Assembly: GCF_003353065.1 (NCBI RefSeq)
Contig: NZ_CP027806.1
Span: forward strand, 1,753,353-1,817,352
Reading direction: 5' to 3'
DNA: 64,000 nucleotides
DNA from: Cyclonatronum proteinivorum
GTDB taxonomy: Bacteria > Bacteroidota > Rhodothermia > Balneolales > Cyclonatronaceae
Shown here: one piece after another, positions 54,367-60,153 of the stretch
Position numbering within the stretch: the first letter of the stretch is position 1
Layout: every line of letters begins with the position of its first letter
Translations under genes and position numbers: made by a program
Notes under the pieces: model-generated
What the model saw: only the letters and a program-made list of their open reading frames with translations
Databases searched by the model: none
Told to the model about the DNA's origin: nothing

Positions 54367-54563
54367 ATGAACCGAATAAAGGAAGTACTTGAAGAAAAAG
54401 GAATTAAGCAGACTTGGTTGGCTGAGAAACTCGGAAAAGTTACAATATGGTGAATGGTTATGTACAAAACCGACAGCAACCAAGACTTGAAGTACTGTTT
54501 GAGATTGCTAAAATTTTGGAAGTAAACGCCAAAGATTTATTGAAAGAAGATTTGAATGACTAA
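54367..54563 (+). pseudogene. XRE/HTH regulator of the RM operon, frameshifted
   Basis: From ATG 54367, MNRIKEVLEEKGIKQTWLAE then KLGK is a normal XRE start but runs to a stop at once. The frame shifted by one base continues SYNMVNGYVQNRQQPRLEVL then FEIAKILEVNAKDLLK. One A seems missing from the GGAAAAGT run (54433-54440). The joined product would be about 65 residues. Such XRE proteins often lie before hsdR. Its end overlaps the hsdR start by 8 bases. Confidence 0.75.
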
Positions 54564-57522
54564 AGAACATCAAATAGAAGAAAACCTAATCAAGCAGCTC
54601 ACCGAGCTGAAATATACCCATCGACCTGAAATTGTCGATAGGAAGTCGCTTGAACAAAACTTCAAAACCAAATTTGAAACGCTCAACCGTGTGCGTTTGT
54701 CAGACAGTGAATTCCTTCGTTTGCGGGAAGAAATCATAGAACCTGACGTATTCAAGGCATCCAAGAAACTTAGAGAACAACAATTCTTCCAGCGTGAAGA
54801 CGGAACACCACTTCATTACACTTTGGTCAACAACAAAGACTGGTGCAAAAATGACTTTGAAGTCATCAGTCAGCTGCGCATCAATACAGAGAACAGCAAT
54901 CAGCGTTATGACATCATCCTGCTGCTCAACGGCCTGCCTATGGTTCAGATTGAGCTTAAGCGACTGGACATATCACCCCGCAAAGCCATGCAGCAAATAG
55001 TGGATTATAAAAACGAACCTGGCAATGGCTATGGCAATTCGCTGATGTGCTACATGCAGTTGTTCATTGTGAGCAACCGTTCCAACACCATCTATTTCGC
55101 CAACAACAAAAAGCAGCATTTCCAATTCAATGCAGATGAGCAGTTCTTGCCCATTTACCATTTAGCGGATGAGAAGAACAACAAAATCAAACATCTGGAA
55201 GATTTTACAGAGCGTTTCCTCAAAAAATGCACACTTGGCGAAATGATTAGCAAGTACATGGTGCTGGTGGAAACGGAGCAAAAACTATTGGTAATGCGAC
55301 CGTATCAAATCTATGCCGTGAAAGCCATTGACGATTGCGTTAAGCAAAACCGTGGCAACGGCTACATCTGGCATACCACAGGGAGTGGTAAAACCCTGAC
55401 TTCTTTCAAAGCTTCAACCCTGCTCAAAGACAATCGGGAGATTGAAAAATGCCTTTTTGTAGTGGACCGGAAAGACCTTGACCGCCAAACACGGGAAGAG
55501 TTCAACAAATTTCAGGAAGGCAGTGTAGAAGAAAACACCAATACCGAAACTTTGGTAAGGCGTTTACTTTCTGCTAATTATGCCGACAAGGTGATTGTCA
55601 CCACCATTCAAAAATTGGGACTTGCCTTAGATGGCACGTACAAACGAAACTACAAGGAACGCTTAGAGCCTTTGCGCGACAAACGCATCGTATTCATCTT
55701 TGATGAGTGCCATCGCTCTCAGTTTGGGGAAAATCATAAGGCCATTAAAGAGTTCTTTCCGAACGCACAGCTTTTTGGCTTCACAGGAACACCCATTTTT
55801 GAGCAAAACTCCAGTCAAAAAATCCGTGAAGATCAGTACGAAAGCTACAAGACTACGGAGAGTATTTTTGAGAAGCAGCTTCACGCCTACACCATCACGC
55901 ATGCCATTGAAGACCGAAACGTACTGAAGTTTCATATTGATTACTTCAGGGGTGAAGGTGCTGCCGCCGCAAGGCCCGGTGAGGGGATTGCGCAAAAAGC
56001 TGTAGTCGAAGCGATTATCAGGAAGCATGACAAGGCTACCAATCAGCGAAAGTTTAATGCCCTCTTTGCTACCGCTTCGATTAATCACGCCATTGAATAT
56101 TTCCGGATATTCAACGCACATCAGCGGGTCATGCAGGAAATTGACCCGGACTTTATACCACTCAATATCGCTTGCGTGTTTTCGCCACCTGCGGAAGGCA
56201 ACAAAGACGTGCAGCAGATTCAGGAAGATTTACCACAGGAAAAGGAAGACAACAAGCAAAACCCTGAAGAGAAGAAAAAAGCCTTGAAGGAAATCATTGC
56301 TGATTACAATAAGCAATTCGACACCAATCACGACATCAACAATTTCGATCTGTACTATCAGGATGTTCAGGGTCGTATCAAGAATCAGAAATACAGCAAC
56401 AAAGACCTTCCGCACAGTAAGAAAATTGATATCACCATTGTGGTAGATATGCTGCTCACGGGTTTTGACAGCAAGTTCCTGAATACACTGTATGTAGATA
56501 AGAACCTGAAGTATCACGGACTGATACAGGCTTTCTCCCGCACCAACCGCGTCTTAAATGACAGCAAGCCGCATGGCATGATTCTGGATTTCCGCTCTCA
56601 GCAGGAATCCGTAAATCATGCTATTATGCTGTTCTCCGGTGAGGATGGTGGCAAAGCCAAAGAGATCTGGATGGTAGATCCTGCGCCTGTGGTCATAGAT
56701 AAGTATCAGGAGGCGGTTTCTAAGCTGGGTGACTTCATGCAGGAGCATAACCTGGTGAATGATCCGGGTGAGGTGTATAATCTTAAAGGTGATGCGGCCC
56801 GCATTGCGTTTGTGAAAAATTTCAAGGAAGTACAGCGACTCAAAACGCAGCTCGATCAGTACACCGATTTGGATGAACAACAGCAAGAGCAGATTGAAAA
56901 AATTCTGCCCAAAGAAACCTTGCAGGAGTTCCGCAGCTCGTATTTAGAAACCGCCAAGCAACTGCGCGAAATACAGCAAAAAGAAGGTGAAGATGCGCCC
57001 GAGGACATCCAACAGCTTGATTTTGAGTTTGTGCTCTTTGCCTCTGCGGTAATTGATTACGATTACATCATGAGCCTGATTGCTGACAGCACCCAAAAGA
57101 AACCTTCCAAACAGAAAATGACTAAGGCGCAAGTTATTCAATTGCTGAAATCCAACGCCAACCTGATGGACGAAGAAGAAGATCTGACGGAATACATCGA
57201 GCAGGTAGATTGGACCACAGGACAAACAGTCGAAGAGCTGAAAAAGAACTTTGAAACCTACAAAGCAGAGAAGTACGACAAGGAACTGGCAGCCATTGCC
57301 AATAAGCACGGCTTGCAAACGGCAGCCCTCAAAACCTTTGTAGAGAAAATCATGAGCCGAATGATTTTTGACGGAGAAAAGCTCACCGATTTGTTGGAGC
57401 CTTTGGAATTGAGTTGGAAAGAACGCAGAACCAAAGAACTGGCCTTGATGGAAGACTTGGTACCGCAATTAAAAAAACTAGCCCAAGGGCGAGAAATTTC
57501 AGGATTGGCCGCTTATGAGTAA
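54556..57522 (+). CDS. hsdR: Type I restriction endonuclease subunit R
   Basis: The 988-residue HsdR has an N-terminal PD-(D/E)xK nuclease region (MVQIELKRLD near 130), a P-loop helicase motor (HTTGSGKTLTSFKA near 275; FDECHRSQFG; LFGFTGTPIFE; MLLTGFDSKFLNTLYVDK) and a C-terminal helical domain. It cuts unmethylated DNA at distance from the target after ATP-driven translocation. It overlaps the HTH remnant and the next gene by 8 bases each, so the operon is tightly coupled. Confidence 0.96.
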   Translation: MTKEHQIEENLIKQLTELKYTHRPEIVDRKSLEQNFKTKFETLNRVRLSDSEFLRLREEIIEPDVFKASKKLREQQFFQREDGTPLHYTLVNNKDWCKNDFEVISQLRINTENSNQRYDIILLLNGLPMVQIELKRLDISPRKAMQQIVDYKNEPGNGYGNSLMCYMQLFIVSNRSNTIYFANNKKQHFQFNADEQFLPIYHLADEKNNKIKHLEDFTERFLKKCTLGEMISKYMVLVETEQKLLVMRPYQIYAVKAIDDCVKQNRGNGYIWHTTGSGKTLTSFKASTLLKDNREIEKCLFVVDRKDLDRQTREEFNKFQEGSVEENTNTETLVRRLLSANYADKVIVTTIQKLGLALDGTYKRNYKERLEPLRDKRIVFIFDECHRSQFGENHKAIKEFFPNAQLFGFTGTPIFEQNSSQKIREDQYESYKTTESIFEKQLHAYTITHAIEDRNVLKFHIDYFRGEGAAAARPGEGIAQKAVVEAIIRKHDKATNQRKFNALFATASINHAIEYFRIFNAHQRVMQEIDPDFIPLNIACVFSPPAEGNKDVQQIQEDLPQEKEDNKQNPEEKKKALKEIIADYNKQFDTNHDINNFDLYYQDVQGRIKNQKYSNKDLPHSKKIDITIVVDMLLTGFDSKFLNTLYVDKNLKYHGLIQAFSRTNRVLNDSKPHGMILDFRSQQESVNHAIMLFSGEDGGKAKEIWMVDPAPVVIDKYQEAVSKLGDFMQEHNLVNDPGEVYNLKGDAARIAFVKNFKEVQRLKTQLDQYTDLDEQQQEQIEKILPKETLQEFRSSYLETAKQLREIQQKEGEDAPEDIQQLDFEFVLFASAVIDYDYIMSLIADSTQKKPSKQKMTKAQVIQLLKSNANLMDEEEDLTEYIEQVDWTTGQTVEELKKNFETYKAEKYDKELAAIANKHGLQTAALKTFVEKIMSRMIFDGEKLTDLLEPLELSWKERRTKELALMEDLVPQLKKLAQGREISGLAAYE

Positions 57523-59487: not shown

Positions 59488-59507
59488 AGACGCAATGCAT
59501 TGCGTCT
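59488..59507. repeat. REP-like palindrome upstream of the RAYT-like gene
   Basis: AGACGCAATGCATTGCGTCT is a perfect 20-bp palindrome 23 bases before the RAYT-like ATG. It shares GACGCAA/TTGCGTC with the palindrome inside that gene. Confidence 0.8.
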
Positions 59508-59529
59508 CAACAGCGTCTCCATAAAGAAA

Positions 59530-60153
59530 ATGGACAAATACAAAAACAAATACCGCATTGCCTCCGCCCGTGCCCCGTTTTGGGATTACGGTTGGAATGC
59601 CGCGTATTTTGTAACCATCTGCACACACAATCGCGAACATTGGTTTGGGAAAATTTCAGGTGGGGTGATGGATTTATCGGCAATGGGTCATGTTGCCAAT
59701 TCCTGTTGGTATGAAATCCCGAATCATTTTCCGTTTGTGGAATTGGGGGCGCACGTTATAATGCCCAACCATATACTCGGCATTGTTATCATCATTAAAC
59801 CGGATGATGGTCGCAACGTAGAGACGCAAAATTTTGCGTCTCTACCACCGCCACCGCCACCGCCACCGCCACCGCCACCACCGCCACAAACGCCACCATC
59901 AAAACCATCGGAAACGGATACCAAACCCAAAAACCAATTCGGTCCCCAATCCAAAAATTTGGCATCCATTATCCGTGGTTTCAAAATTGGGGTAACCCAA
60001 AATGCCCGACAAATCAATCCAGATTTTGCCTGGCAATCACGATTTCACGATCACATTATTCGTGATGACCAATCGTATCAAAAAATATCAGAATACATTA
60101 TAAACAATCCCGCCAATTGGCAAGACGATAAATTTTACAGCACAGCACAATGA
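59530..60153 (+). CDS. RAYT-like (Y1/REP-associated) transposase, HUH altered
   Basis: Start ATG 59530 gives 207 residues of REP-associated tyrosine transposase type: RAPFWDYGWNAAYFVTICTH, the WYEIPNHFPFVELGAHVIMP strand, and a C-terminal FHDHIIRDDQSYQKISEYII helix with the likely catalytic Tyr. The HUH motif normally reads MPNHxHG; here it is MPNHILG, so the second metal-binding His is lost. An insert (about residues 97-118) is encoded by a REP-like palindrome plus a CCACCG run giving a proline tract. Its stop overlaps the hsdM ATG. Confidence 0.8.
   Translation: MDKYKNKYRIASARAPFWDYGWNAAYFVTICTHNREHWFGKISGGVMDLSAMGHVANSCWYEIPNHFPFVELGAHVIMPNHILGIVIIIKPDDGRNVETQNFASLPPPPPPPPPPPPPPQTPPSKPSETDTKPKNQFGPQSKNLASIIRGFKIGVTQNARQINPDFAWQSRFHDHIIRDDQSYQKISEYIINNPANWQDDKFYSTAQ
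59818..59845. repeat. REP-like palindrome inside the RAYT-like gene
   Basis: GTAGAGACGCAAAA and TTTTGCGTCTCTAC form a perfect 28-bp palindrome in frame within the coding sequence, directly before a CCACCG-type microsatellite (59846-59888). Confidence 0.85.

What the first reader, a model, noticed from the sequence alone, without database searches (positions are those of the whole stretch)
59488..60153. RAYT-like transposase carrying its own REP palindrome in frame, with a broken HUH motif
RAYT proteins act on REP palindromes. Here one palindrome (59488-59507) precedes the gene and a related one (59818-59845, sharing GACGCAA/TTGCGTC) lies inside its coding frame, adjoining a CCACCG microsatellite that yields a proline tract. 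The HUH site reads NHIL instead of NHxH. The gene is coupled by ATGA overlap to hsdM. A REP seems to have inserted into its transposase gene, which kept its frame, perhaps after loss of catalysis and adoption by the operon.
Basis: partly seen in the sequence, partly recalled or inferred. Interest (0 to 1): 0.66.

Follow-up and report, generated by a model that had tools for sequence, protein, structure and literature searches.

The report
REP-carrying RAYT gene in restriction operon
A small DNA-cutting "domesticated transposase" gene carries, inside its own reading frame, a copy of the palindromic DNA repeat its family acts on; this is a known habit of this transposase class, but this copy has lost one catalytic histidine and belongs to a class that, in this survey, has slipped into type I restriction operons at least ten separate times.

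Summary
Window 59530-60153 encodes a RAYT (TnpAREP). It has a perfect 28-bp double-foot REP in frame at 59818-59845, an abutting CCACCG array, a REP-like palindrome upstream, NHIL where NHxH is expected, and a 4-bp ATGA overlap with hsdM.

The main oddity is already known. Quentin et al. 2018 (PMC6006769) described in-frame REPs between HuH and Tyr as the hallmark of TnpAREP subclass 2.4 (RAYT group 4), and this gene fits that subclass. Here 78 of 132 related RAYT ORFs carry such palindromes, nearly all with intact HUH, including this genome's second RAYT. H83L is unique to the window (1 of 128) and is the only break in 37 conserved columns. So the insert and the catalytic loss are unrelated.

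Points not found in the papers searched: RAYTs recur in type I R-M operons (17 linked loci; at least 10 independent changes), in an accessory-gene slot that also holds AAA_13, RhuM, YhcG and toxin-like genes. In three species the in-gene hairpin is the genome's only match to its core pattern. The hairpins are 28-29 bp with over-long symmetric arms, and covary among syntenic copies. The hairpin may therefore be a maintained part of the gene.

The parts
59530..60153 (+). RAYT / TnpAREP gene (207 aa from ATG 59530; an in-frame TTG at 59500 gives 217 aa)
   Evidence: NF047646 REP_Tyr_transpos E 7e-13 (below that model's strict cut-off); profile match to 4ER8; top Foldseek hit 4er8_A E 3.6e-6
59818..59845 (+). 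in-frame double-foot REP GTAGAGACGCAAAATTTTGCGTCTCTAC, encoding V97-L105 (frame 0)
   Evidence: perfect 28-bp palindrome; residues 97-105 are the only modelled segment with pLDDT under 50
59845..59897 (+). CCACCG microsatellite, about 8.8 copies, encoding the polyproline tract
59488..59507 (+). upstream REP-like palindrome (ATGCAT core), between hsdS and the RAYT
59770..59778 (+). HUH motif H81-I82-L83; the second histidine is replaced by leucine (CTC)
   Evidence: aligned with EHMH of 4ER8
60094..60096 (+). Tyr189 of YIINNP, aligned with the DYIYINP tyrosine of E. coli TnpAREP
54556..57522 (+). hsdR, type I restriction subunit
   Evidence: TIGR00348, PF04313, PF12008
57515..58354 (+). RhuM-family gene
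   Evidence: PF13310
58347..59477 (+). hsdS, specificity subunit
   Evidence: PF01420
60150..61769 (+). hsdM, overlapping the RAYT stop by ATGA
   Evidence: TIGR00497, PF02384, PF12161

Best explanation
The gene is a RAYT of the class called TnpAREP subclass 2.4 / RAYT group 4, a single-strand DNA endonuclease family that recognises REP hairpins with a GTAG foot. Like most of its relatives it carries a double-foot REP in frame, in a disordered loop between the HUH strand and the helix before the Tyr motif. Most likely REPs enter RAYT genes through RAYT activity. They survive where the loop tolerates any peptide and where length changes beside the palindrome restore the frame, and at least at some loci the hairpin is then kept. 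The gene came by horizontal transfer into an accessory-gene slot of a type I R-M operon, where its stop codon overlaps hsdM and keeps the operon translationally packed. This copy later lost one metal-binding histidine (H83L) with the rest of the protein intact, so it is probably unable to cut, though it may still bind REP DNA. Shown: the anatomy, the family, the recurrence of in-frame REPs, the uniqueness of H83L, the slot and the recurrent R-M linkage. Inferred: RAYT-driven acquisition, horizontal transfer of this copy, loss of activity, and any benefit to the operon.
For: All 39 aligned RAYTs hit NF047646; 4ER8 is the best solved match by profile and by fold. 81 strong palindromes lie in 78 kb of RAYT ORFs against 7 in 301 kb of neighbouring ORFs. 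62 of 132 ORFs have an exact GTRG..CYAC palindrome of 28 (53) or 29 (9) bp; 60 of these sit 10-56 residues after HUH; frame counts are 49/13/0, and the missing frame would read TAG. Loop 90-143 has low confidence while the core is above 90. H83L is 1 of 128 and the only deviation in 37 conserved columns. Pairwise dN/dS is 0.09-0.15 against relatives. The subclass 2.4 description matches. R-M slot; recurrent linkage. The nearest RAYTs come from other phyla and classes.
Against: The subclass signature NH[IFV]H is not met at its last residue. Pairwise dN/dS cannot date H83L or tell relaxed from purifying selection on the last branch. No step of REP movement was observed. The window RAYT's exact REP core (AAAATTTT) is not the commonest dispersed form in the genome (ATGCAT and AAAATCTT are).
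Confidence: 0.78

Rival explanations
1. The in-frame hairpin is not a tolerated passenger but a maintained element of subclass 2.4 RAYT genes: a cognate site carried in cis, used for self-recognition, autoregulation in the transcript or nascent single strand, or to seed new REP families after transfer.
For: In G115, G091 and G063 the only GACGTTG..CAACGTC palindrome in the genome is the one inside the RAYT; the same holds for GACGCA..TGCGTC in G049, G065 and G107. At one syntenic locus in five species (flanking genes 78-98% identical), plus one non-syntenic relative, 14 of 17 stem pairs change on both sides and every cell is paired, 0 of 500 shuffles. Symmetric arms run 3 bp or more beyond the feet in 20 of 62 genes against 1.9 by re-pairing, maximum 8 in 2000.
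Against: Some copies are decayed with the gene still open (L127, L143, L141 after HUH) and 54 of 132 ORFs have no strong palindrome. Covariation and long arms can also come from template-switch repair at palindromes or from replacement of one REP by another. Only six sequences were counted.
Confidence: 0.35
2. One reading: a REP inserted by chance into an already inactive RAYT that had been adopted by the R-M operon.
For: REPs of this kind are dispersed in the genome, HUH is broken, and hsdM is overlapped by ATGA.
Against: The insert is shared, at the same loop, by relatives with intact HUH in many genera. L041 has the same palindrome, in the same frame, with NHVH. All 16 other R-M-linked RAYTs keep HUH.
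Confidence: 0.05
3. RAYTs in R-M operons serve the R-M system, for example by promoting hsdS recombination or acting as an accessory defence nuclease.
For: The linked RAYT is on the operon's strand and mostly next to hsdS, with 4-bp overlaps in L046, L066, L072, L131 and the window. Expected chance linkage in the class sample is 0.09 of 60 loci against 5 found, using an assumed 1.3 systems x 4 gaps per 3500 genes. At least 10 independent changes on the tree.
Against: The hsdS-hsdM slot takes many unrelated genes; RAYT fills only 2 of about 28 readable slots. RAYTs overlap or abut neighbours in other contexts too. The window copy appears catalytically dead. No defence assay exists.
Confidence: 0.15
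4. NHIL is a sequencing or assembly error.
For: It is a single A-to-T difference and is unique among relatives.
Against: The genome is one 4.29-Mb contig, 99.4% complete; no reads are available here.
Confidence: 0.07

Closest known systems
TnpAREP subclass 2.4 (Quentin et al. 2018, PMC6006769) = RAYT group 4 (Bertels et al. 2017)
   Same: In-frame REP between HuH and Tyr, double-foot REPs, WQ and YIxNNP motifs, variable insert between beta3 and alphaC, Bacteroidetes and other phyla, REPs flanking the gene
   Different: The second HuH histidine is leucine here; type I R-M linkage is not mentioned in that paper (no occurrence of 'restriction')
Intragenic GTAG/CGTC REPs and Rickettsia palindromic elements (Di Nocera et al. 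2013, PMC3733652)
   Same: Short palindromes kept in frame inside protein genes
   Different: There the hosts are varied genes such as uvrA and recB; here the host is the REP-processing enzyme gene itself, at one preferred loop
E. coli TnpAREP (PDB 4ER8)
   Same: HUH-Y1 fold, REP-associated
   Different: No insert of this kind, intact EHMH, different loop; about 16% identity in the structural alignment
Accessory genes in type I R-M operons (for example the rlo genes of Campylobacter; from memory, supported only by a term match)
   Same: A variable gene lies between hsd genes
   Different: The occupant here is a RAYT with an ATGA join to hsdM

Membership tests
TnpAREP / RAYT family | REP-associated tyrosine transposase profile and HUH-Y1 fold | tested here: met
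   NF047646 E 7e-13, 48.7 bits against a cut-off of 80; 4ER8 top by profile and fold
TnpAREP / RAYT family | intact HUH motif | tested here: not met
   H81-I82-L83 in the window; 127 of 128 with a recognisable motif are intact. The window gene is therefore filed as a member by descent, not as an active enzyme
TnpAREP / RAYT family | catalytic tyrosine | tested here: met
   Tyr189 in YIINNP aligns with DYIYINP of 4ER8
TnpAREP subclass 2.4 | WQ and YIxNNP motifs | tested here: met
   FAWQSRF and YIINNP
TnpAREP subclass 2.4 | NH[IFV]H motif | tested here: not met
   NHIL in the window; met in most of its relatives
TnpAREP subclass 2.4 | in-frame REP between HuH and Tyr, double-foot type | tested here: met
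   59818-59845, GTAG...CTAC
TnpAREP subclass 2.4 | REPs near the gene and elsewhere in the genome | tested here: met
   59488-59507; 31 against 5 control
TnpAREP subclass 2.4 | placement in the published subclass tree | not tested
RAYT activity | cleavage of GTAG-REP single strands | not testable with these tools
   Needs protein assays

The most novel reading that the evidence does not exclude
In subclass 2.4 RAYTs the in-frame palindrome is a maintained cis element rather than a passenger. It can be the sole copy in a genome, keeps a 28-29 bp double-foot form while its sequence turns over by paired changes, and goes with a class of HUH enzymes that repeatedly colonises type I R-M operons.
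Probability: 0.33. Interest if true: 0.68.

Novelty: new member of a known kind. Interest (0 to 1): 0.45.

Why it matters
How REPs and RAYTs stay matched, and how REPs start in a new genome, is unsettled. A RAYT that carries its own hairpin inside the gene takes substrate and enzyme along together on transfer, and the syntenic sets found here make it possible to test whether the hairpin is selected. The repeated arrival of RAYTs in type I R-M operons does not appear in the open papers searched and suggests either shared routes of transfer or a function near hsdS. The window gene itself, with one catalytic residue lost and everything else intact, is a natural binding-only candidate.

Tried and rejected
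RAYT as a fixed part of this R-M type was rejected: of 30 hsdM relatives only the window's own locus and one other (L216) have a RAYT before hsdM. A general decay of the window gene was rejected: one deviation in 37 conserved columns and low dN/dS. Linkage to R-M by common descent alone was rejected: 15 changes, at least 10 forced, no clustering. An alignment with a wrong start was redone. Paper PMC3479197 was not held. A search for group 4 RAYT papers returned noise.

Full report
Observation. The sequence was read directly. A perfect 28-bp palindrome, GTAGAGACGCAAAATTTTGCGTCTCTAC, lies at 59818-59845 inside an open frame that runs from ATG 59530 (or TTG 59500) to the stop at 60151-60153, and encodes V97-L105. 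A CCACCG array abuts it at 59845-59897. A related 20-bp palindrome lies upstream at 59488-59507. The HUH site reads NHIL. The stop overlaps the hsdM start as ATGA. The operon is hsdR, a RhuM-family gene, hsdS, the RAYT, hsdM.

Genome. The window lies in a single-contig 4.29-Mb genome whose relatives include a Balneolales metagenome bin. It holds 31 GACGCA..TGCGTC palindromes against 5 for the reversed control. Two dispersed forms dominate, with cores ATGCAT and AAAATCTT. Apart from short ORFs, only two copies are inside a gene recognised here, and these are the two RAYT genes. The second RAYT (L002; 58% identical; NHFH intact) directly follows another hsdS and carries the ATGCAT form, in the other open reading frame.

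Family. The protein and 38 relatives all hit NCBIfam NF047646, REP-associated tyrosine transposase; the window scores 48.7 bits against a strict cut-off of 80. Pfam misses it, although 29 of the 39 relatives reach Y1_Tnp at a loose threshold. A profile of the set finds only 4ER8, E. coli TnpAREP, in the PDB; the window's H81-I82-L83 aligns with HMH of its EHMH motif, and Y189 with the tyrosine of DYIYINP. The AlphaFold model (mean pLDDT 84) has a confident core, a disordered stretch at 90-143, and its lowest part exactly at 97-105, the REP-encoded residues. 4er8_A is the best fold match.

Known precedent. Quentin et al. 2018 state that in TnpAREP subclass 2.4 REPs are found inside the tnpAREP genes, do not disrupt the frame, and lie between HuH and Y; they describe 'double foot' REPs and NH[IFV]H, WQ and YIxNNP motifs for this subclass. 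Except for NHIL, the window gene fits. Di Nocera et al. 2013 list intragenic REPs in other genes. The core of the finding is therefore known.

How general. Among 132 distinct RAYT ORFs from three samples, 78 hold a strong palindrome; density is 1.03 per kb against 0.023 in 214 neighbouring ORFs. 62 have an exact GTRG..CYAC palindrome, 53 of 28 bp and 9 of 29 bp; 60 lie 10-56 residues after HUH. The first base falls in frame 0 in 49 cases, frame 1 in 13 and frame 2 never; frame 2 would read TAG. Neither 28 nor 29 is a multiple of three, so simple insertion would break the gene. Open genes must have gained or lost other bases in the loop, consistent with the short tandem repeats that often flank the palindrome.

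Catalytic site. Of 128 ORFs with a recognisable motif only the window has a non-histidine second residue. It is the window's only departure in 37 conserved columns. Pairwise dN/dS with its nearest relatives is 0.09-0.15. This is a point loss in an otherwise intact protein. The HuH motif coordinates the metal ion needed for cleavage (stated in PMC8266576), so loss of cleavage is expected but not shown.

Restriction linkage. Local searches found hsd genes beside the RAYT in 17 loci, on the same strand and mostly next to hsdS. With about 1.2 HsdM_N genes per genome, chance linkage in the 60-locus class sample would be about 0.09, using an assumed four gaps per system among 3500 genes; 5 were found. 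On a RAYT tree the linkage needs 15 changes, at least 10 forced by well-supported branches, and shows no clustering (a FastTree tree, so support values are approximate). Searches for RAYT with hsdS or type I restriction returned no paper on the subject. The slot is not RAYT-specific: before 30 relatives of this hsdM the gene is most often an AAA_13 ATPase, and otherwise RhuM, YhcG, zeta-toxin-like, PIN or PDDEXK_2 genes. RAYT occurs in the window's own locus and L216 only, and L225 has hsdS joined to hsdM by the same ATGA with no gene between. R-M-linked RAYTs carry in-ORF palindromes more often, 16 of 17 against 62 of 115, but this was not corrected for relatedness.

Is the hairpin maintained? 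Three results point that way. In G115, G091 and G063 the only GACGTTG..CAACGTC palindrome in the genome is the one in the RAYT; likewise GACGCA..TGCGTC in G049, G065 and G107. Symmetry runs 3 bp or more past the feet in 20 of 62 genes, against 1.9 when flanks are re-paired. At one locus shared by five species, with one further relative, 14 of 17 pairs vary on both sides with no broken cell. Against this, other syntenic sets show decay, and replacement of one REP by another or palindrome-templated repair would leave the same marks. I hold this as an open reading, not a result.

Verdict. An ordinary, well-formed member of a known class with a unique catalytic lesion, in a changeable slot of a restriction operon. 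The surrounding pattern (recurrent R-M linkage, possible maintenance of the in-gene hairpin) is the part worth following.

Noticed in passing
L161 (5725-6259) versus L164 (5396-5972): Flanking genes are 98% identical but the RAYT at the same site is only 69% identical, with a different palindrome core and a near-identical C-terminal part: a mosaic or partly replaced RAYT with a joint near the loop.
   Followed up: partly
L058 3167-3800: A 158-bp inverted duplication of part of a RAYT 5' half is centred on the in-gene REP; a second RAYT ORF with a C-terminal part lies just downstream in the same locus.
   Followed up: no
L123, L124, L128, L146, L153, L156, L162, L165 (upstream) and L041, L046, L066, L072, L131, L151, window (downstream): RAYT ORFs overlap a neighbouring ORF by exactly 4 bp unusually often, in R-M and other contexts.
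   Followed up: partly
L123, L124, L125, after HUH: Two single-foot REPs in inverted order about 50 bp apart lie in frame, a REPIN-like pair inside the RAYT.
   Followed up: no
G031:C41 15174, 15587, 18463 (L131): All three copies of the GACGTTGCATGCAACGTC palindrome in this genome lie within the R-M/RAYT locus region, as if they arrived with it.
   Followed up: no
L195 1501, 2432, 3257; L006-L010: Palindromes spaced at 400-930 bp occur in clusters in the window's genome, one cluster with a shorter core (GACGCAAAGCTTGCGTC).
   Followed up: no
slot between hsdS and hsdM, L197-L226: Hypervariable accessory-gene slot with ATPase, RhuM, nuclease and toxin-like occupants in relatives of this type I operon.
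   Followed up: partly
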